Shown piece by piece: positions 8,842 through 52,726 of a stretch of DNA of 64,000 nt. Position numbers and translations under genes: made by a program. Source of the DNA: Rosa chinensis (Eukaryota > Streptophyta > Magnoliopsida > Rosales > Rosaceae); the NCBI RefSeq assembly GCF_002994745.2, contig NC_037093.1, positions 18,301,555 to 18,365,554 on the forward strand, written 5' to 3'. Under the pieces are notes generated by a model. The model ran no database searches and was not told the DNA's origin. It worked only from the letters and a program-made list of their open reading frames with translations. Each line of letters opens with the position of its first letter. Position 1 is the stretch's first letter.

Positions 8842-8896
<55 letters not shown>

Positions 8897-11514: not shown

Positions 11515-11958
11515 ACTAATAATAGTGCATAGCTTCTAACGAAAACTATTAAAATGAGGACTTCATGAAAATTTTTTAATCAATAGTTGTGGGATCCATT
11601 TTTTGATCACATTCCACAAATCAACCGTTAGATATTTAGATATTCATGAGTAAATCATTTATGTAAATTTCAACCAAATTAAAAATCATTAAGGCATTTA
11701 TAATCGTGATTTATCATTTTATGAACAAGAAAGTTTTATGTTTGACAAATTTGGTTCGTCTATTTATTTGATCTAGTCGATACCTTAATGATTAGTAATT
11801 TAGAATAAAATTTTCAGAAAAGTAAATGCATACGTAAACATTTAAAGATTAATGATTTTCCCAAATATAATTGAAAAGTAGGTCTCACAGTCATTAATTA
11901 GAAAGTTCTCATGAAGTCTTCATTTTAAAGATCCTCATTAGACACTATCCCTAATAAT
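11515..11958. mobile_element. MITE with ~80-bp terminal inverted repeats
   Basis: The left arm around TAAAATGAGGACTTCATGA is matched in inverse complement by the right arm TCATGAAGTCTTCATTTTA. The outer parts AATAGTG and CACTATCC..ATTATT also pair. Non-coding interior. Confidence 0.7.
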
Positions 11959-13658: not shown

Positions 13659-14213
13659 ACAATGGCCCAAGTGAGCAAAATCTGTAGCAACTGATCTCAA
13701 AGCATCAATCATCTACTCAATGTTTCCGAACCCCAAATACCCCAAATCATAAAATCCAATCTCGTTAAAGTCACAATTAGGTTCATTGTGTTCTTTGAGT
13801 TTGAAGCTTAAAAATGGGTTTGTGGGCAATTGCGCAGTTGATAAAGTTAAGGCTGTTTTCCTTATCCTATCATATTATGCTTATTATTGATTTGGGGAGG
13901 TTGGAGATTGAAGGTTTGGATATCGCTGGCAGCGTCAAGGTAGTCAATGGCTGATTCCAAGAGCTAGTCGCTGACAAAGATGGCGGTGAAGATCAATATG
14001 TTTTGCGACGGTGGACAATTTGGGTGGGGGTTGTGGTGTTTGGAAAATAATGATTAGATTTGGCTGTGAGCAGCCTTGAGATGGTTGAAGAGAGTAAGAA
14101 GATGTGTAGGGAAGAGATGAATAGAGTAAGGATTAGATTTGCCAATGAGACTGTTTGGGGAAAAGAGAGAACAAAGATGGAATAGAGAAAGGGATCTACA
14201 ATTAATTAAAAAA
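12792..14213. other. Unassigned region with a (GA)n tract
   Basis: Two open frames here (12730-13026 on plus and 12774-13085 on minus) overlap in opposite directions and share no recognised domain. The stretch 13030-13420 has coding-like GC content but no family I know. From 13660 to 14200 it resembles untranslated or intronic sequence of a plant gene. No gene is called. Confidence 0.35.
13601..13657. repeat. (GA)n microsatellite
   Basis: 57 bp of perfect GA repeats. Confidence 0.95.
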
Positions 14214-14447
14214 TATTTTAGGGAATCGATATTTGAGAGATAAATTGATGTGCTTTCATTGATAATAGATGTCTATTTATATAAAGGATTATAAGGCATA
14301 GAATCAGAGTTGTACAAGGAAAGGTAATCATACATTGATTGGATATCTCTAAGATTCTCCGAGATTATCTCTAATTCTAACCCTATATCAACTAGAGTAA
14401 GTAACTTCGAGTTTGGGCCAGACACAAATTCTAGATTTACTTGAACA
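14214..14447 (-). repeat. LTR of copia copy 1 (3' LTR)
   Basis: 234 bp. Its first dinucleotide has mutated to TA from the expected TG; the end is CA. Confidence 0.85.
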
Positions 14448-14639
14448 CTCCCCCTTGTGTCGCCCAAACATGGTGTTCCTCTTGTTGCCTCATTAAAAAC
14501 CTAATCGAGTAACAAAAACCCTGTGGGACAAAAATAAGCTCGGTTGAAGGGGAAAAAGAGCACAACACGCCCCTCATGTTTCGAGATCAACATGTAGACA
14601 TCTCTCTCTGATGTCTCCGTCTCCCCCTAATGACTGTGA

Positions 14640-15236
14640 TCATCGGAGCACAGCATATTTCTGGAACGTGGATTTAGGCAATGAATTAGTAAACAAGTCT
14701 GCCACATTGTCCTCAGATCGAACCTGGTTCACTTTGATCTTGAGAAGCTTTAGTTTTTGCTGATCGTAGAAGAACTTGGGTGATATGTGCTTAGTATTGT
14801 CGCCTTTGATGTAGCCTTGCTTCATTTGTTCAATGCAAGAATCATTATCCTCATAAATGCTGGTAGGCTCATCTGTGGTAGACTTCAAACCACAATTGCT
14901 TTGAACATGCATAACTATGGATCTAACCCATATACATTCAGGAATTGCTTCGTGAAGAACAATAATATCTGCATGGTTTGAAGAAGTAGTGACCATGGTC
15001 TATTTAGTAGACCTCTAAGATATCACGATCTTATCCATGGTAAATACATAACCAGTTTGGGAACGACCTTTGTGTGGGTCAGAGAGGTACCCAGCATCAG
15101 CAAAACATTCCAAAACACTTATGTCGTTTTGGGATAGGGAGAGAGAACGCAGACCACTGTTGGTGGCGTTCCTGACATATGATGGGTCTGAATCCATCAT
15201 CTCTCTGTAGGGATAGAACAAGCCCATATCAATCAT
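14640..15236 (-). pseudogene. RNase H remnant of copia copy 1
   Basis: Minus-strand frames give CFADAGYLSDPHKGRSQTGY followed, after a break, by SNHADIIVLHEAIPECIW, EDNDSCIEQMKQGYI and TKHISPKFFY. These are the copia RNase H signatures. At least one frame break near 15000 and several substitutions at conserved positions show decay. Confidence 0.8.
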
Positions 15237-15248
15237 ACTACTTAGGTA

Positions 15249-16460
15249 TCAAAAGATATCTTTAACACCAGTCCAATGGCATCGTGTTGGCGCAGAGTTA
15301 TATCTAGCTAACAAGTTCACAGCGAAAGAGATATCCAGTCTTGTGCATTGAGCTAAATACAATAATGTACCTATTGCACTTAGGTAGGGCATTTCTGCCT
15401 CTAGCACACTTTCGTCGTCATCTTTTGGATGGAATGGGTCCTTCTTTGGATCAAGACTACTGACGACCATTGGGGTGCTTGAAGGCTTAACTTTATCAGT
15501 ATTGAAACGCCTAAGCATCTTTTGGGTATAAGCTGATTGATGAATCAGAATACCATCTTCACGGTGCTCAGGTTCCAAACTGAGGCAAAACCGTGTTCTC
15601 TCAAGATCTTTCAGCTTAAAAACGGATTTCAAGTATTCAACGGTTTCCCTTAACTCTTTAGGGTGCCAATTATGTTCCTGTCATCGACATACACCGCTAC
15701 TATTGCGAATCCAGAACTTGTTCTTTTTATGAACACATATGGGCATAGTTCATTGTTAACATATCTCTTCCCAATCAAGTAGTCACTTAGACGGTTATAC
15801 CACATCCGTCTGGATTGCTTTAATCCATATAGTAAATGTTTCAATCTTATTGCAAACGCGCTTTGTGGTTTAGAGCCATTTGATTTGGGTAACTAAAGTC
15901 CATTCGGGACCTTCATGTATATCTCTATATCTAGATCACCATATAGATACGCAGTAATCACATTCATGAGCTACATGTTCAGTTTTTCAGAAACTACCAA
16001 ACTGACAAGGTAGCGGAACGTAATAACGTCCATTACGGGAGAATATGTCTCCTCGTAGCTGATTTGAGGGCGTTGTGAGAAGCCTTGCACCACAAGGCGA
16101 GGTTTGTACCTTACAATCTCGTTTCTCTCATTATGCTTTCTAACGAATACCCATTTATGACCAACTGGTTTGGTATTGGGCGGTATTGGCACAACTTGTC
16201 CAAATACCTTTCTTTTCGCTAGAGAATCTAGTTTTGCCTGGATCGCATCTTTCCATTTTAGCTAATCAGCTCTGCGTTGGCATTCATCAACGGACCGTGG
16301 TTCGATTTCATCGGTCTTAATAATCTCACGCGCTACAGAGTACACGATCACATCATCAATGATGATGGAGTTTCGTTCCCACGTCCCATGTACACTAGTG
16401 TAATTTACCAAGATCTCTACGTTCTCAGGGATAGGTTCTGAAATTGAGGTATCCCCCAAA
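15249..16460 (-). pseudogene. Reverse transcriptase remnant of copia copy 1
   Basis: In order on the minus strand: a WVFVRK...YKPRLVVQGF block (15971-16192), GLKQS..MWYNRL with VYVDD (15650-15844), and YLSAIGTLLYLAQCTRLDIS (15249-15632). YVDD is the catalytic motif. The frame is broken at least three times, so no polymerase can be made. Confidence 0.8.
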
Positions 16461-16833
16461 GATGTCTATTGGACATAACCATAATCCTGGAACATTCTCA
16501 TGGGATGTGTTTTGAGTATCGATGATCAAAGGATTTGCTTGTGCCTCATTCGCTCTCTTTCTAGGGCGAGAATCCTTCGAACCAATTGGTCTACCGCGCT
16601 TCCTCGAAAAACCTGCGGCCATAGACACCACATCACTGCCAATATTGACAGTGGCACCATCTCCTGGTACCTCAGGAGTGGGGTTACGTCTAGTATTTGG
16701 GACGTCAATCCTTGCAGGCACATTTGCAGCAGGTATATGTGATCTCCTCACTTTGGCAACATAAAAAAAACGCATCAGGCAGAGTGTCTGCTACGTTCTG
16801 GAACTCGATTATTCTTCGCACTTCAAGTTCGGA

Positions 16834-17923
16834 CTATGCGGTACGGGGATCGAGATGAGACATAGTGGGGACAGACCACGACAATTCTTGTTGTTCCTGC
16901 TGAAAATCTGTGTTCTTATCTCCCCCTAACGACGGGAAGACTATCTCAACAAAGTAACAATCCGCAAATCTAGCGGTAAAGAGATCCCCTGTCAAGGGTT
17001 CAAGGTAGCGTACGATAATTAGAGATTCATATCCAACGTATATGCCCATTCGTCTCTGTAGACCCATCTTAGTACTTTGTGGCAGCTTAATAGGCACATA
17101 AATGGCACACCCAAAAATGCCTAAGTGCGAGATATCAGCCTTGTACCCAGTCACTAGTTGTAACGCATAATCAGGTTGGGTGGCTGTGGGTCGTAGACGA
17201 ATTAGCGTCGCTGCGTGCAATATTGCATATCCCCAAACGGAAACAGGGAGATTGGTGCTCATAACCAATGTTCGTGCTATCATTTATAGAAGCTTAATAG
17301 CGGCTTCCGCGAGACCATTTTGGGTATGAACATGAAGAACTGGATGCTCTACATCATCTCCAATGACATGCAATAATCATAGAACATTTTCGATTTAAAC
17401 TCCCCAGCATTATCAAGTCTAATTGACTTAATCAGATGGTCCGGGTAGTGAGCTCATATACGGATAATTTGGGCTAGGAGTTTAGCGTATGCAACATTTC
17501 AAGAGGACAACAACATGACATGTGACCAGCGTGTCGACGCATAAACCAATACCATAAAATATTTAAAGGTCCGCAAGATGGGTGAATTGGTCCACAAATA
17601 TCCCCTTAGATTCTCTGTAAGAACGGAATGAGTATTTTTGGATCCTTTGTGAAGGACTGTCTCGATCCTAATTTCCCTAAGGAACATGCTTTAAAAAATG
17701 AGCGAGGGGCCTGAGAAGTAACCAATGAGGATTTTGGTTGCACCTGAGAGTCCGAAGCGCTATTCGAAGCAAAATTTGTGACTACATCATCCATCATGTT
17801 GTTGGAACCATGGTAAGTGGCATCCATGGTGCCATGGCCATGGGTGACGCCATTTATGGCATTGTCAAGGGGGGACAGAGGCGGCCCTAGGGCGGCGCCA
17901 GAGGCGGCTACAACGGCGGTCAC
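16834..17923 (-). pseudogene. Integrase remnant of copia copy 1
   Basis: Minus-strand pieces SFFKACSLGKLG (zinc-binding CxxC), VYASTRWSHVMLLSS (catalytic-core Asp region, with the Asp lost) and ARTLVMSTNLPVSVWGYAIL followed by the GYKADISHLGIFGC region. Frames are interrupted between 17283 and 17499 and elsewhere. Confidence 0.8.
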
Positions 17924-18323
17924 ACTATGTCCGAGAATTGATGTCCGTGTGAAGTCTTTAGTATACGGATCATCATATCACGATTAGGATGTCCTAGTCG
18001 GTCATTCCAAAGCTAGTATGTGTTAGAATCCAAGAGATCTTCTCTTATTACATTATTGGATTCAATAGGTCAAATTGTAGTGACATAAAGTCTACTAGAT
18101 TGACACATAAGCTTCTCTAAGATGCGCTTTCGTCCGCAATCATTAGAGGTAATGCAAAGGACCTCTTTTCCGTTCTCAATATGCGTTTCCGCATAAAATC
18201 CATTGGCTCTGATATCTTTAAAATAAGGTTTGATTTGCCTTACGAGCATAGAGAGCTTCTGCGACATTAATAAAGGTGCCATTAATTTGGCAATAGGAAT
18301 TGGGTCATTCCATGTCCTTGAAC

Positions 18324-18520
18324 TTAACATGATGGCCCAGCCATCGTAGTCACAGAGGAATATGTAGGTAACATCTCTAAGAATAATTGCCTATGGCAGA
18401 GAAAGGTGTGTGTAGTCGCACTATCCACAAGACATTGCAGTTCTCCAGAATCTATTCCTAAAAGAAGAAGGCTCGTAATTAAAAAGTCGCCACAATGAAA
18501 AGAACTCAACTTTTATTAAT
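18324..18520 (-). pseudogene. Protease remnant of copia copy 1
   Basis: Reads LLLLGIDSGELQCLVDSATT, where DSATT is the aspartic protease active site. In the intact-reading copies the corresponding position reads MDELQC; here there is ATA, not ATG. A pyrimidine-rich stretch ending TTTTAG immediately precedes it on the minus strand. Confidence 0.7.
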
Positions 18521-18818
18521 AAGCCAAACGGAATTACATCATTATCTCTTGAGTCAAAGAAAATATAATCCAATAAACTAGCTAATGCAAAACAATGGCA
18601 TTCGTCTAACTTCTTTCGGTAACTCCAAAGCAAATATATGACTAGGGGAGTAAAGAGATGTCGGTGGAGCAAGGCTTGCTAAAGTACCACTAATCTCAAA
18701 ACCTTCCTAGACATCACACTTACTTTGAATGAGCCTACTTTGAAGAAAGACTAAACCATTGGCATTCACTACAAAAACAATATGGCAATTGCCTACATCT
18801 CTTGGAAAATAAAAAGAC

Positions 18819-19913
18819 TTAATCAAAATTGCCAGTCTCTTGGCCCTTGAAGTCTTCCATCCTAAGAGCGAGATCGTCATCTTGATCTTCTTGCTCCATG
18901 TAATGTGCTTCCCTTGCTTCATGATACACCTTGTATGGGTCTGCAACATTCTGGGATACTCTACATGCTTTGGCCCAATGTCCAGACTCCACATCGAAGA
19001 CAAGCATCATTATGGTCAGGCTCTATTGATCGAGGTGCTCTAGGAGCGCGTTGGGGACGACTATTCTCCTTGGTGGCGCCACCACCATAGCTGGAGGCTT
19101 TGCCTCTCTCTCTCTTTTCACACGTTGACCTCCACTGTTCCATGAATGCCAATCTTGGCGGTTTCCTTCCTCTTTGGGGCGAGAATAAGGACCAAAACGT
19201 CCAGAATCATCCCTACTCTTAAGGTTTCACTCCTTCGTCCTCTCTTGGGGGCGCGACTATAATTAGACTCTAGAATAGACTTGGTTCTTCACAAGGATAT
19301 TGTCGTGCTTCTCAACTACGTTCATGGCCCCAATAAGCTCATGAAACCTTATAACGCGTCTTGCATTTACATCAATCCGATAATTCTTTGCAATCATCAG
19401 TGCAGAGACAGGGAAGGTAGAGAGAGTCTTCCCGATCAACATCGTATTTGTGATGGTCTTGCCATAGAACTCCATCAAAGACTTGATACGAAGGGCTTTC
19501 GAATTGTAGTCAAGTACGGACTTAAAATCACAGAAGTGGAGGCTATGTCATCTCACTTGTAAATCTGGAAGAAGGGAGTCACGAACTTTGCCAAAACGCT
19601 GCTCGAGTTCTACCCATAGCTGTCTAGGGTCTTCCTCATTGAGGTACTCATTCTGGAGCGCATCATTCATGTGCCTTTTCATGAGAATTATGGCTTTAGC
19701 TTCATTAGCCTCTCTCGTAGCTCTATTCGCTTTATAACCGGCAGCTTGTTGAGGAGTAATCACGTTCTGACTTGGCTCTCGGATCATATCTAGGATCCCA
19801 TCAGCCTTAAGATGCTGGCGCACATCACAGACCCACTTGTGGTATCCTGCACCTGTCGTCTCAAGTGGAACAAAGTTCAACTTGTTCAGGTTACTCATCC
19901 TGAAAAACAACAA
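18819..19913 (-). pseudogene. Gag remnant of copia copy 1
   Basis: Begins MLFFRMSNLNKLNFVPLETT and carries the RQHL..DGI and LWVELEQRFG blocks of the copia gag (UBN2/DUF4219-like). It continues in shifted frames to a damaged zinc knuckle and ends ETGNFD-stop, the same stop position as in the two younger copies. Confidence 0.75.
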
Positions 19914-20823
19914 AAAATTAGCGTTAGTTTCGGAGCGAAAAAGGCTACCCTGAAAATAATAAAATTTATGAGCATAGTCGCTTCCAAGAAATTAGGGATT
20001 TCTGAGCGTAGTCGCTTCCAAGAAACCCGATTCCAAGAGGAATTGGATTAGATCGAAACAATGATGTGTTTGTGGTCGAATATAACACTCAACAAACTCT
20101 AAGTTTGGAGGACTCTACAAGCTCCAAGCTTGGAGTGAGCACGGACCCCCACAGTTCGGCTTTTAGTCTCTCATATGAAGAAGAAAGGAGGGTAGAAGAA
20201 TGGAAGTTGCAAGTCCCTAAGAAAAGACGAGAGAAAAAAAAAACTTCAAAAAAGGGAACTTTTAGTAAAACATACCTTGAAAAAGTGTCGAAAAGTCGTT
20301 GGAAAAGGTCACCTGAAAAGTCTGCCTAAGGTGGCCAGAAGTCAGCAGTGGTTGCTGGCTGGAGCTGCTGCGTGGCGCTTGCAGGGCTTGTGCGAAGGCT
20401 GTCGACAGCTAGTGAGGCTAGTTGAGGGGTGCTGCGCGCAGGACTCTGCAGGGGCTACAGGGACTGTCGGTAGGTGCGTGCGGGGCTTCGACAGGTGCGC
20501 GGGGGGCTACCGAGCGCAGGGGCGCGCGAGGGCTTGTGCAAGGGCTGTTGACAAGGGCTCGGCAGATGCACAAGAGGACTGCAGGAAAATGTGCGCAAGG
20601 CAGGCACAGGGTGCTGCAGGTCTCGGCAGAGGCTGGTGAGGCTAATTTTTCCGGTTCAGTGACTTCTGACTGCCAGTTCAAGGCGATTCCAGCACGTTTC
20701 TTGAGAATCCGTCGCCGGTTCTGGGCTCTTGGGATCTAGGGTCTCAATATGTGTGGCGGTGGTTGCTAGGGTTTAAAGGCTATGAAATTAGGGTTTCAGG
20801 GTTAGGGCTTCGTGCTGATAATG

Positions 20824-25475: not shown

Positions 25476-25480
<5 letters not shown>

Positions 25481-25532
<52 letters not shown>
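25481..25532. repeat. (TA)n microsatellite, left flank of foldback element B1
   Basis: 52 bp of TA repeats directly abutting the element core. Confidence 0.95.
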
Positions 25533-25533
<1 letters not shown>

Positions 25534-25932
25534 GGATCTTATCCAGAGCGAGGCATCGCTTTAAAATTTCAGAGCGAGGTTAGGGTTTAGGGTCACTTTT
25601 CGGTCGCATATCCACATCTCAACCGTTCAGTTTTTAGGTACTAATGTATGGATCATCTCTGCAAAATTTCAACGAAATTGATGGTCTTTAAGGTATCTAA
25701 CTCGCTTAAACCAATGGACGAACTGAATCTGTCCAACCTGAACCGTACTAGCTTTAAGGCAGTTATCAATGCCTTAACGACCATCAATTTGGCTGAAATT
25801 TTGTAGAGATGATCTATACATTAGTACCTAGAAACTGAATGGTTGAGATGTGGATATGCGACCGAAAAGTGACCCTAAACCCTAACCTCGCTCTGAAATT
25901 TCAAAGCGATGCCTCGCTCTGGATAGGATCTG
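25533..25932. mobile_element. Foldback element B1 embedded in (TA)n
   Basis: The core is about 400 bp and begins CGGATCTTATCCAGAGCGAG. The right end is its inverse complement, ending CTCGCTCTGGATAGGATCTG. Terminal repeats of about 170 bp are nearly identical, so a single strand can fold into a long hairpin. TA repeats stand on both sides, with no other target duplication. A second copy lies at 31548-31951. No coding capacity. Confidence 0.85.
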
Positions 25933-26075
25933 TATATATATATATATGTGTATATATATATATATGTATATATATTGTTTAAAGAATATATATATATATA
26001 TATATATATATCAATTTGATTTATAATTTAATATATATATATATGTGTGTGTGTGTCTTTAAGATGATCAATTTG
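25933..26075. repeat. (TA)n / (TG)n microsatellite cluster
   Basis: Several TA tracts broken by GTGTA and ATTTGATTTATAATT, with a short TG run near 26045-26054. The right flank of element B1. Confidence 0.85.
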
Positions 26076-30350: not shown

Positions 30351-30599
30351 GAGCAAGTTCACCCGTTGAGGTTGGCTGGTCAAGATTATTAACTGTTTTT
30401 TGCTTTTTATTTCCACCTTTTTTCTTGACCAGTCAGATATTGTTCATAAAAAGTCACTCTGGGTCAATTTCTTGACCTGCCAACTAACATTTTGTGACTT
30501 TTTGTGAACAATATCTGACTGATCAAGAAAAATGATGGAAATGAAAGGCAAAAAGCAGTGAATATTCTTGACTAACCAACTTCAATGGTGGACTTGCTC
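30351..30599. mobile_element. Tourist-like (PIF/Harbinger) MITE
   Basis: Ends GAGCAAGTTCACCCGTTG…CAATGGTGGACTTGCTC. Extended inverted repeats include GGTCAAGA.TATT.ACTG.TTTTTGCC and, further in, TTGTTCA.AAAAGTCAC. A TAA follows the right end; the left copy of the TAA has drifted. Same family as the element at 45700-45962. Confidence 0.7.
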
Positions 30600-30602: not shown

Positions 30603-31088
30603 GAGAATGTGTATGGAATTTGGAGCTGTAGATTTACGTAGTCGACTAGAATGTAACAAATTAAGCATATAAAAATACATACAACTGCTAACAACTCTAG
30701 TCGACTGTGTTTAGAGTGTGACAATTTGGATTTTGGAGTACTCATTTTGATCACTGGAAATGATCTCAACTTTCGCAGAGTTTTGGTTTGTTTTCTAAGA
30801 CTTAAAAAACTGTACGGACTATAATTTTGTTGCATCGGTATTAATACATTTTTGCATATCAGTTTCACATAATAATATTACTATCTTATAGCCCCCTGCA
30901 CAAAACTAATCTACCTCTTTCGCTCTTTCTAATTGTTTAATTTATATCAAAATATTGAGCGGGTGCAGCATGATAATTAGAATAATTTAATTGGATGATG
31001 AATAATTATTTAAAATAATTGTGATTCAATATTTATGATAATTAAATTGGCATCTTAAACATATAGATCCTCTCTAGAAAACCTCAAT
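30603..31088. other. Non-coding AT-rich stretch
   Basis: No domain, repeat or RNA gene recognised; the minus open frame at 30599-30868 has no family I know. Confidence 0.35.

Positions 31089-31120
<32 letters not shown>
31089..31120. repeat. (TA)n microsatellite, left flank of element A1
   Basis: Perfect TA repeats up to the first base of the GC-rich core. Confidence 0.95.
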
Positions 31121-31124
<4 letters not shown>

Positions 31125-31491
31125 GCCGTTCGAGAGCGGACGTCCGCAACTCAGAAAAAGTGCGGACGTCGCTCCTCCGGCCTCATCGAGCGGCGACGGC
31201 GCGGCGCGGCTTGCCGGAGGGATGCTGGGGGTCGTGCGGAGGGGTCTGCGGTCCGGTGGAGTCGCCGGCGACGATTCTGCGGTGCTGCACAAAACCTGCA
31301 ACTGCAGGTGAGGTGGCTGCCCAGAAACCGGCAAGCCCGACCTCCTCCGACCTCGAACGCCGCCCAGAAGAGGTCTGGGACGCCTCCGGCCTCCCTCCGG
31401 CCATCCCTGTGCCGCCGCCACCGCCTGGAAGCCGCTGCTGCAACGACGTCCGCACTTTAGCGAAAGTGCGGACGTCCGCTCCTGATCGGGC

Positions 31492-31494
<3 letters not shown>
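31121..31494. mobile_element. GC-rich palindrome-ended element A1 embedded in (TA)n
   Basis: A 374-bp GC-rich core stands between TA tracts. Both termini carry GAGCGGACGTCCGC followed by a hairpin-forming palindrome: intact at the right as GCACTTTAGCGAAAGTGC, decayed at the left. The second copy, A2 at 47146-47519, is also 374 bp and is homologous along its length in inverse orientation. Open frames on several strands come only from the high GC content. Confidence 0.8.

Positions 31495-31547
<53 letters not shown>
31495..31547. repeat. (TA)n microsatellite shared by elements A1 and B2
   Basis: A single 53-bp TA tract forms the right flank of A1 and the left flank of B2. Confidence 0.95.
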
Positions 31548-31551
<4 letters not shown>

Positions 31552-31951
31552 TCCTATCTAGAGTAGAGCTCCGCTTTAAAATTAACGTGTGAAGTTCGAG
31601 TTTAGAGTCATTTTTCAGTCGCATATCCACATCTCGAACGTTCAGTTTTTAGGTCATAATATATAAATCATCTTTGCAAAATTTCAGCCAAATTGATGGT
31701 CGTTAAGGCATTGATATATGCCTTAAAGCTAGTATGGTTTAGGTTGGACAGATTCAATTCGTCTATTGGTTTAAGTGAGTTAGATACCTTAAAGGTCATC
31801 AATTTGGCTGAAATTTTGCAGAGATAATATATACATTAATACCTAAAAACTGAACTGTCGAGATGTGGATATGAGACCGAAAAGTGACCATAAACTCTAA
31901 TCTCGCACTTTAATTTCAGTTTAATTTCATAGCGAGGCCTCGCTCTGGATA
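31548..31951. mobile_element. Foldback element B2 adjoining (TA)n
   Basis: Same family as B1: begins CAGATCCTATCTAGAG, ends CCTCGCTCTGGAT, long inverted arms with GCATATCCACATCTC and AAATTTCAGCCAAATTGATG. More diverged than B1. The right TA tract has decayed to AAATATTATATAGAT. Confidence 0.8.

Positions 31952-32011: not shown

Positions 32012-32096
<85 letters not shown>
32012..32096. repeat. (CT)n microsatellite
   Basis: 85 bp of perfect CT repeats. Minus-strand RE/ER polypeptide frames across it are spurious. Confidence 0.97.
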
Positions 32097-32099
<3 letters not shown>

Positions 32100-32315
32100 A
32101 CTAAGGCCGAGGAGGCGCTAAAACTCCACCTCTCATCCGGTGGCACTCTGACTAGCAGCAGTGTGACCTTCGTCGCGTTGCTGTCATGACGTTGTCTCTC
32201 TCTCTCTCTCTCTCGAGAAACTAAGGCCAAGGAGGCGCAGAAACTCCACCTCTCATCCGGTGGCACTCTGACTAGCAGCAGCGTGACCTTGGTTGCGTTG
32301 CTTTCATGACGTTGA
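32097..32315. repeat. Tandem duplication (~120-bp unit including a short CT tract)
   Basis: Units at 32097-32194 and 32216-32315 both run from AAACTAAGGCC through CTCATCCGGTGGCACTCTGA to TCATGACGTTG, with a few substitutions. A short (CT)n lies between them. Confidence 0.9.

Positions 32316-35589: not shown

Positions 35590-35620
<31 letters not shown>
35590..35620. repeat. (TA)n microsatellite
   Basis: About 31 bp inside the probable LTR. Confidence 0.9.
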
Positions 35621-40162: not shown

Positions 40163-42874
40163 ATGGCTGACCGGAGAGCTGAAGAAAATGTCGTCTCCGG
40201 CCAACCCATCCAGAAAACCATTGCAGATTTCGATCCCGCTCCCAAACCCAAGAGAAACAAGTTCGCTTTTGCTTGTGCTATGTTGGCTTCCATGACTTCT
40301 ATCCTACTCGGTTATGGTAAGTAATCGTTTATGTTTCTTTCATTTTGAAATATGATATTCGGGGAGGAGAGACCTGAACTCGAGATATCTTGAGAACTGT
40401 GTTGTCTTTATATAGATACACACATACACGCACATACATATGCATGTGGTGGTTAAGTTTTTTGTGTTATCTACAGATATTGGTGTAATGAGTGGAGCGG
40501 TGATCTTCATCCAAGACGACCTCCATGTCTCCGACGGGCAGATCGAAGTTCTAGTCGGAATTCTGAATCTCTACTCCCTCATCGGCTCCGCTGCCGCCGG
40601 CAGGACGTCCGACTGGATTGGACGTCGGTATACCATAGTCTTCGCCGGAGCCATCTTCTTCGCCGGAGCTCTTCTCATGGGCTTCGCCACCAACTATTCC
40701 TTCCTCATGTTTGGGAGGTTTGTTGCCGGAATCGGCGTTGGTTATGCCCTCATGATTGCTCCTGTCTACACCGCGGAAGTTTCTCCGGCGTCGTCTCGTG
40801 GTTTCCTCACGTCTTTCCCTGAGGTAGGTTTGTTCGTTTGTTTCTGGCTTGTTAGTTAAAATCTTTGAAGCACTTATCAAGAAAGCTTTAGAATATGCTC
40901 TTGGATTTTACCCACAAAGCACCAAAGTCCAAAGGCAACACCCATCCTTTCTCTGAGTTTTGGTCTTTTGGTTATGGTTGGAACTTTTCTGACAATATTG
41001 AAAAACCGTTTATTTTCAACTCACCACTTTTGTTCTCCTCTTTTTTTTTTTTATCGAAATGAAATTTACCAAACTCAATCAAGAGAGTACAAATCAGGCC
41101 AATAAACTCTCCTTTTGGCCTCTAAAACAATTAATTTGCTTTTAACAAATCATATAGCCAAAAGGACCTACATCCTTACTGTTCATAGATTGAACCATCT
41201 TCAATAAGTTCCTTTCCAGACCATGAGCTACTGGGATAGTTTTTTTGCGCACATGATTCCAAGTCACAAATTCAAACTCCCGCAACAGAGATCGGACTCC
41301 ATCCAAAACAAGCCCAATTGAATATTATGCAAAGAATTTATAGTTGTTGGCTAACATATTTCGTAAGCAATTGAATATTATGTATAAAACTTTTTTGGAT
41401 TTGTTTTACAAAATTTATCTACACATCATTATGGCCTATTTGACTAGTAAATTGCCTCACATCATTTAATAAATAAATTTGATATACAAATTCAGAATAC
41501 TTATCAAATTCTTATTGGTCGAGTTGAGTTTGTTGTCTTGTTTTTTTTTCTTTTTCTGAATAGCTCGGTTTTTTTTTCCCCCCTTCCTTGGAGGCAAACT
41601 ATGCCCACGAAGTTGGGAAAAATTTTTTGGTTATCATACTTACCTCATTTTTTTTTTATGCTTTCATCTCTAATAAAGTACTTTTTTCTTTTTTTCTTTT
41701 TTTCTTTTTGAGAACATAATAAAGTACTAACCGATGTTTGGTTGTTTGAAACTTTGAGCAGGTGTTTATCAATGCCGGAATCTTATTGGGGTACATATCC
41801 AACTGGGCATTCTCCAAGCTCGCACTTAACCTAGGCTGGCGTCTCATGCTCGGCGTCGGTGCAATACCCTCCGTCTTCCTCGCCCTCGGCGTCTTAGCCA
41901 TGCCGGAATCCCCTCGCTGGCTCGTCATGCAGGGCCGTCTTGGCGACGCCAAGAGAGTCCTCGACCGAACTTCAGACTCCATGGAAGAGTCCAAACTCCG
42001 ACTCGCCGACATCAAAGAAGCCGCCGGAATCCCCGAGCACTGCAACGAGGACGTCGTTCAAGTCCCAAAACGCAGCCACGGTGAAGACGTCTGGAAAGAG
42101 CTCATACTCCGCCCAACCCCCGCCGTCCGTCACATTCTCATCGCCGCCGTCGGTATACACTTCTTCCAACAAGCCTCGGGCATCGACGCCGTCGTTTTGT
42201 ACAGCCCGAGAATCTTCAAAAAGGCCGGAATAAAGTCCAAGACCAAACTCCTCCTCGCCACCATAGCCGTCGGATCCGTCAAGACAGTCTTCATCCTCGT
42301 CGCAACGTTTCTTCTGGACAGGATAGGACGCCGTCCTTTGCTTCTTACCAGCGTAGCAGGGATGATAGCCTCACTTGGTTGTCTCGGTTTCAGCCTCACC
42401 ATCATCGAACACAGCGACGAGAAGATCATGTGGGCCATTGTTCTCTCCATCAGTATGGTCTTATTCTACGTGGCGTTCTTCTCCATCGGAATGGGCCCCA
42501 TCACGTGGGTCTACAGCTCCGAGATCTTCCCGTTAAAGCTACGAGCTCAGGGGTGTAGCATTGGAGTCGCCGTCAACAGAGTCGTCAGTGGAGTACTCTC
42601 AATGACTTTTTTATCCCTGTACAAGGCCATAACTATTGGCGGAGCCTTCTTTCTTTTCGCCGGAATTGCGACGGTTGGCTGGGTGTTCTTCTATACAATG
42701 CTGCCGGAGACACGGGGGAGAACCCTTGAAGATATGGAGGTTCTTTTTGGGAAGTTCCACAAGTGGAAAGAGGCCAATGCTCTGCTCAAGAATAAGCGTG
42801 CCAATCCTAATAGTAACGAGAACAACACCGGCAACGGTGGTCAGGTTCAGTTAGGAACAAAAGGGCAAGATTAG
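40163..42874 (+). CDS. Polyol (sorbitol-type) transporter, MFS sugar-porter family, three exons
   Basis: Predicted H+-coupled polyol/monosaccharide carrier of the plant plasma membrane (PLT/SOT group). Exons: 40163-40316, 40477-40823 and 41762-42874, all with GT-AG introns (GTTATG|GTAAGT, TACAG|ATATTGG, CCTGAG|GTAGG, GAGCAG|GTGTTT). They join in frame to 537 residues, normal for the family. Signatures: GRTSDWIGRR (93-102, loop 2-3), PESPRWL (215-221), QQASGID (303-309, TM7), DRIGRRP (353-359, loop 8-9), GPITWVYSSEIFP (412-424) and PETRGRT (482-488). The N-terminus MADRRAEENVVSGQP is cytosolic. The start was chosen because exon 1 supplies TM1 up to LLGYD, which joins IGVMSGA. Transport of sorbitol specifically is inferred from family resemblance, not shown. 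Confidence 0.93.
40824..41761 (+). other. Intron 2 of the polyol transporter
   Basis: 938 bp, T-rich, with several poly-T runs near 41040 and 41650-41710. Unlike intron 2 of the paralogue, it holds no MITE. Its first ~130 bp and last ~100 bp align with the paralogue's intron. Confidence 0.85.
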
Positions 42875-43490
42875 GGTTGGTGATGACAATATATATATAG
42901 TAGAGTAGAAGAAGCTCAACCCATAGTCTGAAAATTTTTGTATGCGTGCGGATTATATATAACCGGCACATACAAAAGCTTATCAGAAGGCAAATGGTAT
43001 AAGAATGGTTGATGGCTCGGCCCCTTCAAGGAGAAAAATCAAATGCAATGATGAAAACAAAGTTTTATATGTGTATTCATTGTACAAGGTTGTGCTTGAC
43101 ATTTGCTTACCATTTGTAGGTTTTTTATTTTTTCCTCTTTTGGTGACTCGTGAGACTGTATTTCAGAAACTAGAAATAATAGTAGTCATGAGTGAATTAT
43201 CATGAATGTGTGTTCAGATCATGAATGAATTATCAATTTTTAACTAGTAACAAAAAAAAAATTATCAATTTCTTAACTAATGTCTCTAAGATCTGGAAAA
43301 AAATTTGTATCGACCTAAATATTTGACAACGCGATTATATAGATTCCAAATTGAGTGTTTATTATACCTCTGAACCCAAAAGTACAATTATGGATACTGT
43401 TTGTGATAAAGTTCTTAATACGCCATTAACTGTATGTATAATTTAGGTCCAGAAAATAAAGAAATAGTGAGGCAATGTTAATATTTGCAT
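42875..43490 (+). other. 3' flank of the polyol transporter, duplicated downstream of the paralogue
   Basis: Matches 47607-48052 plus 55155-55314. It contains a short TA run at 42887-42899, where the paralogue has a large insertion, and the sequence TTTGACAACGCG near 43333, the empty-site counterpart of the copia target in the paralogue's flank. Confidence 0.85.
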
Positions 43491-45383: not shown

Positions 45384-45699
45384 TTAAAGAGTTAATTAGG
45401 TAAATATTTGGTAAGCCATTGAATATTAAATAGAAACCTTTTTTCGGTTTGGTTTTACAAAATTGTAATTGCATTACATATGCCCAGACACAAATACAGA
45501 ATATTTATCTTGAGTTGAGTTTGTTGTCGACCCATGCCAAGATTTTGATCCACTTTTTTGGGCTTCTTTGTAAGTCAATTCTTCTCGTTCGCTTAGACTT
45601 GCTCTATCTATGCCCACGAAGTTGGGAAAAACGTTTTGGTTATCAAACTCACCTCAATTTTTTTTTTGTTTAATGGTTTCATCTCTAATAAAGTACTAA

Positions 45700-45962
45700 G
45701 AGCAAGTTCATCCGTTGGGTCACCAGGTCACCCACTATTCACTGCTTTTTAGTGTTAATTTCATCCTCTGGGTCACGAGCACAGTGTATTTCGTGCCCTG
45801 GGTCAACCTGTACAGTGTTCTGGGTCACCATGGTGACCTGCACAGTGTATTTCGTGCCTTGGGTCACAGGCACAGTGTATTTCGTGACCCAGAGAATGAA
45901 AAATATACACTAAAAAGCAGTGAATAGTAGGTGACCCGGTGACCCAACGGGTGAACTTACTC
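45700..45962. mobile_element. Tourist-like (PIF/Harbinger) MITE in intron 2 of the paralogue
   Basis: Ends GAGCAAGTTCATCCGTTGGG…CCCAACGGGTGAACTTACTC, TAA on both sides (45697-45699 and 45963-45965). Internal GGGTCAC/CACAGTGTATTTCGTG repeats. Same family as 30351-30599; absent from the intact gene. Confidence 0.85.
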
Positions 45963-47100
45963 TAACCGAGTAACTGGTGTCTGGTTGTTTGAAACTTTGA
46001 ACAGATGTTTATCAATGCCGGAATCTTATTGGGGTACATATCCAAGTATCCAACTGGGCCTTTTCCAAGCTCGCGCTTAAACTAGGCTGGCGTCTCATGC
46101 TCGACGTCGGTGCAATCCCCTCCGTCTTCCTTGCCCTCGGCGTCTTAGCCATGCCGGAATCCCCTCGCTGGCTCGTCATGCAAGGCCGCCTCGGCGACGC
46201 CAAGAAAGTCCTCGACCGAACCTCAGACTCCATGGAAGAGTCCAAACTCCGACTCACCGACATCAAAGAGGCCACCGGAATCCTCAAACACTGCAACGAC
46301 GACGTCGTTCAAGTCCCAAAACGCAGCCACGGAGAAGACGTCTGGAAAGAGCTCATCCTCCGCCCCACCCCCGCCGTCCGTCACATTCTCATCACTGCCG
46401 TCGGTATACACTTCTTCCAACAAGCCTCCGGCATCGACGCCGTCCTTTTGTACAGCCCGAGAATCTTCAAAAAGGCCGGAATAAAGTTCAAGACCAAACT
46501 CCTTATCGCCACCATAGCCGTCGGATCCGTTAAGACTCTCTTCATCCTCGTCGCAACGTTTCTCCTGGACAGGATAGGACGCTGTCCTTTGCTTCTCAGC
46601 AGCGTAGCAGGGATGATAGCCTCACTCGGCTGTCTCGGTTTCGGCCTCACCATCATCGACCACAGCGACGAGAAGATCATGTGGGCCATTGTTCTCTGCA
46701 TCAGCATGGTCTTATTCTACGTAGCGTTCTTCTCCATCAGAATGGGCCCCATCACTTGGGTCTACAGCTCCGAGATCTTCCCGTTAAAGCTACGCGCCCA
46801 GGGGTGTAGTATCGGAGTCACCGTCAACAGAGTCGTGAGTGGAATCCTCTCAATGACTTTTATATCCCTGTACAAGGCCATAACTATCGGCGGAGCCTTC
46901 TTTCTTTTCGCCAGAATTGCGACAGTTGGCTGGGTGTTCTTATACACAATGCTGCCGGAGACACGGGGGAGAACCCTTGAAGATATGGAGGTTCTTTTTG
47001 GGAAGTTCCACAAGTGGAAAGAGGCCAATGCTCTGCTCAAGAATAAGCGTGCCAATCCTAATAGTAACGAGAACGACACCGGCAACGGTGGTCAGGTTCA

Positions 47101-47101
<1 letters not shown>

Positions 47102-47145
<44 letters not shown>
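47102..47145. repeat. (TA)n microsatellite, left flank of element A2
   Basis: About 44 bp, starting directly after the CAG codon of the broken transporter. Confidence 0.95.
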
Positions 47146-47146
<1 letters not shown>

Positions 47147-47518
47147 GGGCGAGTTCTAGAGAGGACGTCCGCACTTTCGCTAAAGTGCGGACGGCGACGC
47201 AGCCGGCTGTTCCAGGCAGCGACGGCGGCGTGGAGCTTGCCAGACGGAGGCCAGAGGCTTCCCAGACGCGTCTGGACAGCGATTGAAGTCGGAGCAGGTC
47301 GGGTTGTAGGTTTCTGGGCGGCGACCCGACCTGCAACTGCAACCGGACATGCAGCGCTGCAACCTCGTCTCCGGCGACTCCACCCGACTGCAGACAGGTC
47401 CGTCCGACCCCTGGCCTCCGTCCGGCATGCTCCGCCGCTCCTTCGCGCCCCGAGCCGAGCTGCTGCATCGCCGTCCGCACTTTAGCGAAAGTGCGGACGT
47501 CCGCTCTCGATCCTCTCC

Positions 47519-47519
<1 letters not shown>
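47146..47519. mobile_element. GC-rich palindrome-ended element A2 embedded in (TA)n
   Basis: 374-bp core. Both ends have GAGGACGTCCGC or GAGCGGACGTCCGC followed by the palindrome GCACTTTCGCTAAAGTGC, then GGACGGCGA; the terminal inverted repeats are about 55 bp. The interior aligns with A1 in inverse orientation (shared blocks around GTGGAGTCGCCGG and CCGCCCAGAAACC). No transposase. The TA tracts on both sides are the only target repeats. Confidence 0.85.

Positions 47520-47606
<87 letters not shown>
47520..47606. repeat. (TA)n microsatellite, right flank of element A2
   Basis: 87 bp of TA, joined to the TTAGTAGAGAAGAAG flank, which corresponds to the short TA run at 42887-42899 in the intact copy. 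Confidence 0.95.
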
Positions 47607-47609: not shown

Positions 47610-48052
47610 TAGAGAAGAAGAAGCTCAACCTTTCGTCTGAAAATCTTTGTATGCGTGCGGATTATATGCAACCGGCACATACAAAAGCTTAAATTTTTAT
47701 CAGAAGGAAAATGGTACAAGAATGGTTCATGGCTCGGCCCTTACGAGGAGAAATATCAAATGCAATGAAGAAAACAAAGTTTTACATGCGTATTCATTGT
47801 ACAAGGTCGTGCTTGACATTTGCTTACCATTTGTAGTTTTTTTTATTTTTTCCTCTTTTGGTGACTCGTGAGACTGTATCTCAGAAACTAGCAATAATAG
47901 TAGTCATGAATGAATTATCATGAATGTGTGTTCAGATCATGAATGAATATTATCAATTTTTAACTTGTAACCGAAAAAAAAAATTATCAATTTTTTAACT
48001 AATGTCTCTAAGATCGGGACAAAAATTTGTATGGACCTAAATATTTGATAAC
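47607..48052. other. 3' flank of the paralogue, left of the copia insertion
   Basis: Collinear with the 3' flank of the intact gene from 42897 to about 43335. Ends in ATTTGATAAC, whose last five bases are the copia target duplication. Confidence 0.85.
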
Positions 48053-48270
48053 TGTTTTAGAGAAACTGAATTTGAGAGGAATTTGCTATGTATTCTCATT
48101 GATAATAGGGGCCTCTTTATATAGAGGATTACAATACATAGAATCTCAATCGTACAAGGAAAGTAATCGTACATTGAATAGGAATCTAGATCCTTCTAAT
48201 TTAACCCTATTACCACTAGGTCAAGTAACCCAGAGTTTGGGCTAAACACAAATATAGATATCCTTAAACA
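48053..48270 (-). repeat. LTR of copia copy 2 (3' LTR)
   Basis: 218 bp; preceded by target duplication ATAAC. Contains a TATA-like TTTATATAGAGG in antisense view. Confidence 0.95.
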
Positions 48271-48461
48271 CTCCCCCTTGTGTTGTCCAAAAGTGGTGCT
48301 TCTCTCGTTGCCTCGTTAAAAACCTTGCCGAGTAACAAAAACCCAGTGGGACAAAAATAACCTCGGTCGAAGGGGAAAAAGAGCACAACACACCCTTCAC
48401 GTTTCAAGCTGAACATGTAGACATCTCCCCTGATGTCTGCGCCTCCCCTTGATGACTACAA

Positions 48462-50378
48462 TCATGGGAGTTCAGATAATTTCCGCAAGCCAATTCTCGC
48501 CACATGTTTCTCGAACGTGGATTTGGGCAATGACTTAGTAAACAAGTCTGCCTCATTGTCCTCAGATCGAACTTGGTTTACTTTGATCTTGAGGAGCTTC
48601 TGTTGTTGTTGATTGTAGAAGAATTTAGGTGATATATGCTTGGTGTTGTCGCCTTTGATGTAGCCTTGCTTCATTTGTTCAATGCAAGCAGCATTATCCT
48701 CATAAATGCTCGTTGGCTCATCTGTGATAGACTTCAAACCACAATTACTTCGAATATGCGTAACTATGGATCGAAGCCATATACATTCACGAACTGCTTC
48801 GTGAAGAGCAATAATCTCTGCATGATTCGAAGAGGTGGCGACTAAGGTCTGCTTTGTAGACCTCCAAGATATCGCGGTTTTTCCCATGGTGAAAACATAA
48901 CCAGTTTGGGAGCGACCTTTGTGTGGGTCAGAGAGGTACCCAGCATCAGCAAAACCTTCCAAAACACTTATATCATTTTAGGATGGGGAGAGGGAACGCA
49001 GTCCACCATGTGTGGCGTCCCTGGCACTTGATGGGTCCAAATCCATCTTCTCTCTGAAGGGATAGAACAAGCCCATATCGATCGTATCACTTAGGTATCG
49101 AAAGATATCTTTAACACCAGTCCAATGACGTCGTGTAGGCGCAGAGCTATATCTAGCTAGCAAGTTCACAGCGAATGAGATATCCGGTCTTGTGCATTGT
49201 GCTAAGTACAATAATGCGCCTATTGCACTTAGGTAGGGCACTTCTGCCTCTAGCACTTCTTCATCGTCATCTTTTGGACGAAATTGATCTTTCTTTGGAT
49301 CAAGACTACGGACGACCATTGGGGTGCTTGAAGGCTTAATCTTATCAGTGTTGAAACGCCTAAGCATCTTTTGGGTATAAGCTGATTGATGAATCAGGAT
49401 ACCATCTCTACGGTGCTCAAGTTCTAAACCGAGGCAAAACCGTGTTTTCCCAAGATCTTTCATCTCAAACTCGGATTTCAAGTGTTCAGCGGTTTCCCTT
49501 AACTCTTTAAGGGTGCCAATTATGTTCATGTCATCGACATAAACCGCTACTATTGCAAATCCGGAACTTGTCCCTTTTATGAACACACATGGGCATAGTT
49601 CATTGTTGACATATCCCTTTCCAATCAAGTAGTCACTTAGACGGTTATACCACATCCATCCGGATTGTTTCAATCCATATAGTGAGCGTTTCAATCTAAT
49701 TGCAAACGCGCTCCGTGGTTTAGAGCCACTTGATTTGGGTAACTGAATTCCGTCTGGAATCTTCATGTATATCTCTGTATCTAGATCCCCATATAGATAC
49801 GCAGTAACCACATCCATAAGCTGCATGTTCAGTTTTTCGGAAACCACCAAACTGATAAGGTAGCGGAACGTTATGACGTCCATTACGGGAGAATATGTCT
49901 CCTCGTAGTCGATTCCAGGGCGTTGTGAGAAACCTTGCGCCACAAGGTGAGCTTTGTACCTTACAATCTCATTTTTCTCATTACGCTTTCTAACGAATAC
50001 CCATTTGTGACCAACTGGTTTGGTGTTGGGCGGTATTGGCACAACTGGTCCGAATACCTTTCTTTTCGCTAGAGAATCAAGTTCTGCCTGGATCGCATCT
50101 TTCCACTTTGGCCAATCGGCTCTACGTTGACATTCATCAACGGAGCGTGGTTCGATGTCATCGGTCTCAATAATCTCACGCGCCACTGAATACGCGAAGA
50201 CATCATCAATGATGATGGAGTTTCTTTCCCACGTCCCATGTACACTAGTGTAATTAACAGAGATCTCTACGTTCTCAGGGATAGGTTCTGACAATGAGGC
50301 GTCCCCCAAAGATGTCTCTTGGACATAACCATAATCCGGAACATTATCATGGGACGGATTTTGAGTATCGATGATCAA
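48462..50378 (-). pseudogene. Reverse transcriptase and RNase H of copia copy 2
   Basis: From the 50378 side: HKWVFVRKRNEKNEIVRYKA, LVAQGF, VVTAYLYGDLDTEIYMKIP, LYGLKQSGWMWYNRL, the catalytic VYVDDMN, and YLSAIGALLYLAQCTRPDIS. Then RNase H: ADAGYLSDPHKGRSQTGY, SNHAEIIALHEAVRECIW, YEDNAACIEQMKQGYIKGD and LFTKSLPKS. One in-frame stop (a Gln codon changed to TAA, about 48976) separates the two parts, and another (Lys codon to TAG, about 50408) cuts them from the integrase. Apart from these the domains read through and look full-length. Confidence 0.9.
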
Positions 50379-50405
50379 AAGATTTGTTTGTGCCTCGTTC
50401 GCTCT

Positions 50406-52365: not shown

Positions 52366-52726
52366 TCCTAAAAGAAAAGCTCGTAATTAAAAAAAGGAGT
52401 CATAAAGAAAAGAACTCAACTTTTATTAATAAGCCAAACGGAATTACATCATCGTTTCTTTAACCAAAGGAAATCTAATCCAATAAACTAGTTAATGCAA
52501 AACAATGGTAGTCGTCTAACTCCTTTCGGTAATTCCAATGTAAATGTGACCAGGTGAGTAGAGAGATGTCGGTGGAGCGAGGCTCACTTAAGTACCACTG
52601 ATCTCAAAACCTTCCTAGACATCACACTCACATTGCATGCGCCTACTTTGAAGAAAGACTAATAGCATTGGCATCTACTACAAATATAATATGGCAATTG
52701 CCCACATCTCTTGGAAATAGAAAGAC
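52366..52726 (-). other. Gag-pol spacer of copia copy 2, possible intron
   Basis: About 360 nt between the gag stop and the protease. On the minus strand it ends GAGCTTTTCTTTTAG|GAATG, a pyrimidine tract and AG just like a 3' splice site. It contains several GTGAGT/GTAGGC-type donor words, all downstream of the gag stop. The same spacer is present in copies 1 and 3. Confidence 0.6.

What the first reader, a model, noticed from the sequence alone, without database searches (positions are those of the whole stretch)
31089..31951. Two different foldback families share one (TA)n tract
Element A1 (31121-31494) and element B2 (31548-31951) are unrelated in their interiors, yet a single 53-bp TA tract separates them, and TA repeats also stand outside A1. 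The other copies, A2 (47146-47519) and B1 (25533-25932), again have TA tracts on both sides. Four of four copies from two families in TA microsatellites is hard to put down to chance. It resembles rice Micron, a microsatellite-targeting element (established knowledge). Both families have AGAGCG/AGAGCGG about 12-18 bp from the end, which may be a shared recognition motif. The families and any common enzyme may be undescribed.
Basis: partly seen in the sequence, partly recalled or inferred. Interest (0 to 1): 0.78.

Follow-up and report, generated by a model that had tools for sequence, protein, structure and literature searches.

The report
Rose mini-transposons that target TA repeats
Two families of small non-coding jumping-DNA elements in a rose genome sit mostly inside TA repeats and so get strung together there; this behaviour is already known from rice, pineapple, guayule and other plants, but the rose elements also share an unexpected common design at their ends.

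Summary
A1, A2, B1 and B2 are real foldback elements; 7 of their 8 ends abut perfect (TA)n runs of 15-87 bp. The window matches Rosa chinensis. Among 39 fetched copies each, 59 of 78 A ends and 75 of 78 B ends lie in TA runs, and 11 more A ends in CA/TG runs. A control foldback family from the window has 0 of 40. Two A copies with no microsatellite on either side have exact 10-bp target duplications, pointing to Mutator. Paralogues of the A2 site carry an unoccupied TA run of 11, 35 or 39 bp, so the repeat probably came first. B lies within 130 bp of A at 8 of 39 A loci, 7 of them through TA-rich spacers. This is the known SaTar/Micron/Ac-mMITE kind, and Micron-type MITEs are already reported as extensive in Rosaceae. 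What I did not find described is the end design: a 12-bp dyad at +16 to +27 from the repeat edge, with covarying bases, on ends of different sequence. No autonomous partner was found in the part of the MULE loci examined.

The parts
31121..31494 (+). Element A1, 374-bp GC-rich foldback MITE
   Evidence: 41 places spanning 298 or more of its 374 bp in the genome search, 832 first-look candidates of which 40 were scored
47146..47519 (-). Element A2, 374 bp, inverted relative to A1
25533..25932 (+). Element B1, 400-bp foldback MITE
   Evidence: 3119 first-look candidates in the genome of which 40 were scored
31548..31951 (-). Element B2, inverted relative to B1; outermost right-end bases lost
31495..31547 (.). 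Shared 53-bp TA tract linking A1 and B2
31091..31120 (.). 30-bp TA tract left of A1
25480..25532 (.). 53-bp TA tract left of B1
25933..26044 (.). 15-bp perfect TA then degenerate TA right of B1
47102..47145 (.). 44-bp TA tract left of A2; stands where the sister gene has the end of its coding sequence
47520..47606 (.). 87-bp TA tract right of A2
31136..31147 (.). A1 left-end dyad GCGGACGTCCGC at +16 to +27
31468..31479 (.). A1 right-end dyad
47161..47172 (.). A2 left-end dyad (5 of 6 pairs)
47493..47504 (.). A2 right-end dyad
25548..25559 (.). B1 left-end dyad GCGAGGCATCGC (5 of 6 pairs)
25906..25917 (.). B1 right-end dyad (5 of 6 pairs)
31563..31574 (.). B2 left-end dyad, degenerate (4 of 6 pairs)
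31932..31943 (.). B2 right-end dyad GCGAGGCCTCGC
   Evidence: weak end match, 9.7 bits, below two unrelated places
42842..42900 (+). Empty-site paralogue of the A2 insertion: end of the sister transporter gene with an 11-bp TA run at 42889-42899

Best explanation
A and B are two non-autonomous (MITE) families of Mutator-like (MULE) DNA transposons of the microsatellite-targeting kind. A MULE-type transposase supplied in trans is proposed to recognise the shared end: about 15 bp with T at +10 and usually C at +11, then a 12-bp dyad at +16 to +27, probably bound as a dimer. It inserts the element with a 10-bp duplication, preferring an existing TA (sometimes CA/TG) run, almost always in one phase (TATA read outward from both ends). 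The duplication merges into the repeat, which later changes length by slippage. Because an inserted element keeps TA on both sides, the next element of any family with the same end design can land beside it, giving chains such as A1-(TA)-B2. Shown: TA association in the sampled copies, the control, 10-bp duplications for A, TA runs at paralogues of the A2 site, even phase, chains, and the shared covarying end dyad. Inferred: the enzyme, dimer binding, trans-mobilisation, later expansion of the tracts, and for B the Mutator assignment itself.
For: TA or CA/TG flanks on 70 of 78 A ends and TA flanks on 75 of 78 B ends, and TA or CA/TG flanks on 33 of 36 ends of 18 older B2-like copies, against 0 of 40 ends of control foldback family C and a TA background of 0.96% of window positions. 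Exact 10-bp duplications at the two A copies with no microsatellite on either side, L020 GAAATTTAAC and L047 TTTAAACTAT. In 37 of 40 copies with perfect TA on both sides and recognisable ends the phase fits an even-length duplication, and 36 of those 37 are in one phase. Paralogues of the A2 site: sister gene with 11 bp TA, L156 and L157 with 35 and 39 bp TA, none occupied. A B neighbour (whole or partial) within 130 bp at 8 of 39 A loci, 0.06 expected if 3119 B copies lay at random; B-B neighbours at 9 of 39 B loci. End design: A-B end identity not reached in 20000 column shuffles; 77 of 229 element-facing tract edges have a >=5/6 dyad starting exactly at +16, and 122 of 229 at +14 to +16 against 5.4 (maximum 12) in shuffles; covariation score 0.60 against 0.26, 0 of 500 shuffles.
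Against: No duplication is known for B: none of the 39 top B copies has both ends bare, so none could show one; L052, with one bare end, matches at 7 of 10 bases by eye. No autonomous element was found: 30 of the 150 scored MULE-domain loci (816 first-look candidates) were scanned with 1.5-kb flanks and none had a matching end. The sequence beyond the TA run in L156/L157 does not match the window copies, so those two empty sites are homologous on one side only. The A2 copy lacks 38 bp present in its sister, so its insertion or later history was not a clean cut-and-paste. Of the covariation measures, two were not exceptional: pairs with a change on both sides (51 of 500 shuffles as high) and further pair types (116 of 500). 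107 of 229 edges lack the dyad. Only the 40 best of 832, 3119 and 2569 candidates were scored, so young copies are over-represented.
Confidence: 0.87

Rival explanations
1. The chains form by homologous recombination: circular extrachromosomal copies with TA filler between their ends recombine into genomic microsatellites (model of PMC5907723), rather than by direct transposase-mediated insertion into TA.
For: Flanks of one element can differ (TA on one side and CA/TG on the other in 6 of 39 A copies). The A2 site lost 38 bp next to the tract, and L156/L157 diverge beyond the tract, as if exchange happened there. A circle with a fixed TA junction would also give one uniform phase.
Against: Two A copies outside microsatellites have clean 10-bp duplications, so a normal transposase route exists for the same ends. 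36 of 40 copies share one TATA phase, which direct target choice by an enzyme also explains. Compound CA/TA microsatellites could explain mixed flanks.
Confidence: 0.15
2. The TA tracts are made by the elements: the ends carry short TA that expands after insertion, so the microsatellites are a consequence and not a target.
For: The occupied A2 site has 44 and 87 bp of TA where the closest sister has only 11 bp. PMC5907723 reports the same for the maize elements it cites (short 6-8 bp target, later expansion).
Against: Two further paralogues carry 35 and 39 bp of TA at about that place without an element, and the window has TA tracts that touch none of the four elements (8849-8890, 35591-35620). 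L020 and L047 have no TA beside them although their ends are intact or nearly so. CA/TG flanks are hard to derive from a TA seed.
Confidence: 0.12
3. A and B are Stowaway-type (Tc1/mariner) MITEs, whose 2-bp TA duplication merely looks like TA targeting.
For: Short foldback elements with TA immediately outside.
Against: Tracts of 15-87 bp, CA/TG flanks and 10-bp duplications in A, and ends that do not resemble the CTCCCTCC-type Stowaway terminus (recalled, not from a call).
Confidence: 0.02

Closest known systems
SaTar elements of guayule and rice (PMC5907723)
   Same: Small TIR elements of several sequence families, mostly in microsatellites and often TA; some copies with 10-bp duplications; 19-47% of guayule copies linked or fused to others, in non-nested arrays; classed as non-autonomous MULEs.
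   Different: Different host. Autonomous partners with similar ends were found there and not here. The words palindrome, hairpin and motif do not occur in its main text.
Ac-mMITE-1 and -2 of pineapple (PMC8449440)
   Same: Two top MITE families in (TA)n that share TIR similarity, cluster by adjacent insertion, and have a minority with 9/10-bp duplications; no autonomous partner found there either.
   Different: Lengths 510-570 and 210-270 bp against 374 and 400 bp here; first and last bases mostly GA/TC there. Its sequences are in supplements that I could not read.
Micron of rice (rSaTar2)
   Same: About 380-bp element, 492 of 510 copies flanked by microsatellite (table in PMC5907723); assigned to MULE by its TIRs.
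   Different: 0 copies with a target duplication listed for rSaTar2, against 2 of 39 A copies here. No sequence comparison was possible. PMC12550479 reports Micron-type MITEs as extensive in Rosaceae, averaging 7.7% of MITEs there.
MuTAnT of Medicago (PMC4486113)
   Same: Foldback MULE MITEs in TA runs; 14 of 218 copies outside perfect TA; a putative autonomous copy is described.
   Different: 9-bp duplications there, 10-bp here. The published terminal search mask GGGGTTTGCTAGAACA is unlike A and B ends by eye.
MITEs in microsatellites (MiM) of carrot (PMC8227079) and TAFT of maize (as cited in PMC5907723 and PMC4486113)
   Same: TA-tract residence; for the maize elements, short TA targets that lengthen after insertion, as the 11-bp sister site suggests here.
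   Different: Seen only as passages (carrot) or as cited by other papers (maize).

Membership tests
Microsatellite-targeting MULE MITEs (SaTar / Micron / Ac-mMITE kind) | Short non-coding element with terminal inverted repeats, many copies | tested here: met
Microsatellite-targeting MULE MITEs (SaTar / Micron / Ac-mMITE kind) | Most copies flanked by dinucleotide microsatellites, unlike another MITE family of the genome | tested here: met
   Sampled copies: A 70/78 ends, B 75/78, B2-like 33/36; control family 0/40
Microsatellite-targeting MULE MITEs (SaTar / Micron / Ac-mMITE kind) | Chains of elements of different families joined by microsatellite | tested here: met
   B within 130 bp at 8 of 39 A loci (7 with TA-rich linkers), B-B at 9 of 39 B loci
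Microsatellite-targeting MULE MITEs (SaTar / Micron / Ac-mMITE kind) | Elements in chains never interrupt one another | not tested
   Nesting was not counted
Mutator superfamily (MULE), for family A | 8-11 bp target-site duplication | tested here: met
   Two exact 10-bp duplications, L020 and L047
Mutator superfamily (MULE), for family B | 8-11 bp target-site duplication | tested here: inconclusive
   No B copy examined is bare on both sides; L052 only 7 of 10 by eye. Assignment of B rests on ends shared with A
Mutator superfamily (MULE) | Ends match an autonomous element encoding a MULE transposase | tested here: inconclusive
   30 of 150 scored MULE loci scanned, no matching end; the other 120 not fetched
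Rice Micron as a sequence family | Sequence similarity to Micron / rSaTar2 | not testable with these tools
   No plant repeat library or rice genome available; supplements not readable
Stowaway (Tc1/mariner MITE) | 2-bp TA target duplication | tested here: not met
   10-bp duplications in A

The most novel reading that the evidence does not exclude
The ends of these elements follow a common code that survives change of sequence: a 12-bp dyad fixed at +16 to +27 from the microsatellite edge, with compensating changes (GCGGACGTCCGC, GCGGAGCTCCGC, AAGGACGTCCTT, AAGGGATCCCTT), plus T at +10 (in all 21 aligned ends) and usually C at +11, found on element types with A-like, B-like and other interiors. 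One MULE enzyme group reading this dyad, and inserting into TATATATATA in a single phase, would explain how several families share one target and build mixed chains. The interiors would then be largely interchangeable cargo between standard ends.
Probability: 0.45. Interest if true: 0.6.

Novelty: new member of a known kind. Interest (0 to 1): 0.4.

Why it matters
How MULE-type MITEs come to sit in microsatellites, and whether by normal transposition or by recombination of circles, is left open in PMC5907723 (section read) and PMC8227079 (passage). The rose families give a tractable case: many copies 97-98% identical to B1, a control family, 10-bp duplications, a natural empty-site series in one gene family, and a defined end dyad that predicts what a transposase should bind. 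The A2 insertion also shows such an element standing where the end of a transporter reading frame used to be.

Tried and rejected
Stowaway/Tc1 reading: rejected for A by the 10-bp duplications. TA tract as part of the element: disfavoured by CA/TG-flanked copies and by the two copies without TA. Rfam and tRNA scans of the window: nothing. Pfam scan of 20 of the 100 stop-to-stop frames of >=90 aa listed: sugar transporter and Copia reverse transcriptase domains only. Lone A-type ends as a route to a long autonomous element: 12 ends fetched; behind each lies a short A-like element (L164 matches A only near its two ends; the far end of L167 was not identified), and no long element was seen. Empty site for B1 by its right flank: the flank is unique in the genome search. 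A second control family (window 45699-45963) did not complete. The stretch at 31068-31079 beside the A1 tract may be a remnant of an element end (BLAST matches) but is not among the 22 best end matches. A pattern count for B ends did not complete.

Weak points of the flank count: a run of at least 8 bp in an 18-bp stretch at the edge, with the edge of incomplete hits extrapolated. Of the 8 bare A ends, four belong to L020 and L047, one each to L017, L025, L035 and L041; for L017 and L025 the printed flank shows an intact end beside TA with an internal deletion, so the script misplaced them. One search used a 20-bp stretch for the B2-like copies.

Weak points of the dyad test: the ends were picked by hand from elements (25 ends; 6 of 25 fall below 5 of 6 pairs). 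Of these, 21 went into; four (L069, L039, L021, L030) were left out because their dyad or edge was shifted. Related ends are not independent. harvest edges by script, but from loci fetched because they hold A or B. The count tool treats G-U as a pair. In one search ties were broken towards +16, in the shuffles too. In one search the control edges were only 42, with 1 dyad at +16. In one search one B end was entered one base out of register, which lowers the observed value. The 0.06 expected neighbours use first-look candidates as copy number.

Full report
What is there. The four elements exist as described. A1 (31121-31494) and A2 (47146-47519) are 75% identical in opposite orientation, and B1 (25533-25932) and B2 (31548-31951) are 84% identical in opposite orientation. 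All four have long inverted arms. Of the two folded, B1 forms a near-perfect hairpin (-178.7 kcal/mol, z -37.8) and A1 a less perfect one (z -6.5). Apart from their ends A and B show no similarity in the BLAST. The tract between A1 and B2 is 53 bp of perfect TA. Seven of the eight ends abut perfect TA runs; the right end of B2 has lost its last bases and does not. A random position has such a run beside it 0.76% of the time.

Where it is. A 370-aa transporter frame of the window is 100% identical to a Rosa chinensis protein, and the tool places the window at 18.30-18.37 Mb of contig C6 of a 515-Mb genome. I take the genome to be rose on that ground.

Genome-wide test. Searches with A1, B1 and B2 gave 832, 3119 and 2569 first-look candidates, of which 40 each were scored, the window's own copy among them. 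I fetched the 39 other A loci and the 39 other B loci. Of the 39 other B2-like places I fetched 18 whose match ran to or near the end of the query, and one array; 20 were not fetched. Using a dinucleotide run of at least 8 bp at the edge, A had 59 TA, 11 CA/TG and 8 bare ends of 78, two of the bare ones probably misplaced; B had 75 TA and 3 bare of 78. B2-like copies, about 86% identical and so older, had 27 TA, 6 CA/TG and 3 bare of 36. The control is another foldback family from the same window (30351-30599): 20 copies of the 40 scored were fetched and 0 of 40 ends lie in a microsatellite. The sample favours young copies. A second control family could not be searched.

Superfamily. Two A copies lie in ordinary sequence on both sides, L020 and L047. 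Each has an exact 10-bp duplication, GAAATTTAAC and TTTAAACTAT. That is the Mutator range. No B copy examined is bare on both sides, so B could not be tested. Among 40 copies with perfect TA on both sides and recognisable ends, 37 are in a phase that fits an even-length duplication, and 36 of those 37 are in one phase, with TATA read outward from both ends; 3 do not fit. A1 of the window itself is in the rarer even phase.

Was the repeat there first? A2 sits at the end of a duplicated sugar/polyol transporter gene. The sister copy in the window (41762-42874) has its stop codon and then an 11-bp TA run at 42889-42899; the copy with A2 lacks 38 bp including the stop codon and has 44 and 87 bp of TA around A2. 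Two more paralogues on C6, L156 and L157, have 35 and 39 bp of TA after GGGCAAG with no element. Their sequence beyond the TA run does not match, so the homology is on the left side only, and their run starts 20 bp upstream of the sister's run. The simplest reading is that a TA run was present before A2 and lengthened later. The reading frame of the A2 copy now runs through the TA tract into A2.

Chains. Of 39 A loci, 8 have a B neighbour (whole or partial, at least 80% identical) within 130 bp and 1 has an A neighbour; of 39 B loci, 9 have a B neighbour and 1 an A neighbour. Most of the 19 linkers listed are pure TA; L034 ends in TG, L036 is a compound repeat, and L035 has a 7-bp non-repeat linker to a B fragment. 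With 3119 B copies placed at random, 0.06 A-B neighbours would be expected. So the pair in the window is one of a recurrent kind.

The ends. A and B ends align without gaps from the tract edge; mean identity over 27 bp exceeds every one of 20000 column shuffles and every internal position of B tested. A profile of seven ends scores 32-37 bits at those seven and at most 14.9 elsewhere in the window, while shuffled windows reach 14.5 (the seven built the profile). Beyond A and B, copies with a B-like core (71-78% identical) but other ends occur beside the fetched elements, and L164 has A-type ends on a mostly different interior. In 25 hand-picked ends, 19 have a 12-bp dyad with at least 5 of 6 pairs, 17 at +16 and 2 at +14; shuffled ends give 0.6 on average (maximum 4) in the range +13 to +17. 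Among 381 distinct tract edges harvested by script, 75 have such a dyad at +16 against about 2 per position in shuffles. Among 229 edges that face an A or B interior, 122 have one at +14 to +16, against 5.4 (maximum 12) in shuffles; 107 do not. Other positions above the rest are +29 (38 edges), +11 (16), +27 (14) and +1 (11). Counting 21 aligned ends, 94.4% of cells pair and both-sided changes occur at 5 of 6 pairs; the covariation score of 0.60 exceeds all 500 shuffles (mean 0.26) and all slid versions (at most 0.20). Two further measures are not exceptional: the number of pairs with both-sided changes (51 of 500 shuffles as high) and further pair types (116 of 500). Relatedness among ends makes these numbers optimistic. 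I read the dyad as a binding site of a dimeric transposase; that is inference.

Autonomous partner. The 20 window frames scanned hold no transposase domain. The MULE domain PF10551 gave 816 candidates in the genome, 150 scored; 30 loci with 1.5-kb flanks were scanned and none had a matching end.

Compared with what is known. Of PMC5907723 I read the outline, three results sections and part 1 of 2 of the discussion; of PMC8449440 two of six parts; of PMC4486113 two of four parts; of PMC12550479, PMC8227079, PMC12477314 and PMC12595863 passages only. The first three describe the same kind in guayule, rice, pineapple and Medicago, with linked arrays in the first two and shared ends between families in pineapple. 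PMC12550479 states that Micron-type MITEs are extensive in Poaceae and Rosaceae and average 7.7% of MITEs in Rosaceae; the word Rosa alone does not occur in its main text. Searches for rose-specific reports showed none in their listings (in one search, 20 of 30 papers were listed). A search on palindromes in the ends of such elements listed 7 papers, none of which I recognised as describing this design; passages of the three main papers were checked for such words. The library holds open-licence papers only, and supplements could not be read.

Verdict. A sound observation with the right instinct; the phenomenon is known, the rose families are members of it, and the end dyad is the part that may be new.

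Noticed in passing
window 46097-47485: The second transporter copy has lost the stop codon that its sister has; its frame runs through the TA tract (a YIYIYI stretch) and stops inside A2, giving a 462-aa open frame.
   Followed up: partly
L155 (G000 C5:61946991-61949610): Six B copies in a row; four have an exact 405-bp period and differ from each other at 0-2 of 398 bases, so this part looks like local tandem duplication and not separate insertions.
   Followed up: yes
L055, L058, L064, L069, L160, L165 and others: Elements with a B-like core but other ends (GGATTTTTCTCAGGTGCGGACGTCCGTAC..., CAGGGCCCTTC...GAGGGATCCCTT...), also beside TA or CA tracts.
   Followed up: partly
L164 (G000 C2:78028876-78031376): Element with A-type ends and a mostly unrelated interior.
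   Followed up: no
window 11529-11948: Old foldback with a core about 66% identical to B, no TA flanks and no clear target duplication by eye.
   Followed up: partly
window 8709-8941: Three copies of a 42-44 bp unit in alternating orientation around a 42-bp TA tract; matches neither A nor B.
   Followed up: no
window 30351-30599: Foldback family with ends GAGCAAGTCCAC and often TTA/TAA flanks, 204 first-look candidates in the genome; looks like another superfamily and served as control.
   Followed up: partly
window 14200-20284, 48039-55154, 56495-61504: Three related Copia-type retrotransposon stretches (aligned pieces 86-97% identical); reverse transcriptase domain confirmed in one frame.
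   Followed up: no
window 32012-32314: An 85-bp CT run to the right of B2, followed by two tandem copies of a 120-bp unit.
   Followed up: no
window 31061-31090: Stretch CATATAGATCCTCTCTAGAAAACCTC beside the left tract of A1 resembles an element end; possibly a remnant of a third element in the chain.
   Followed up: partly
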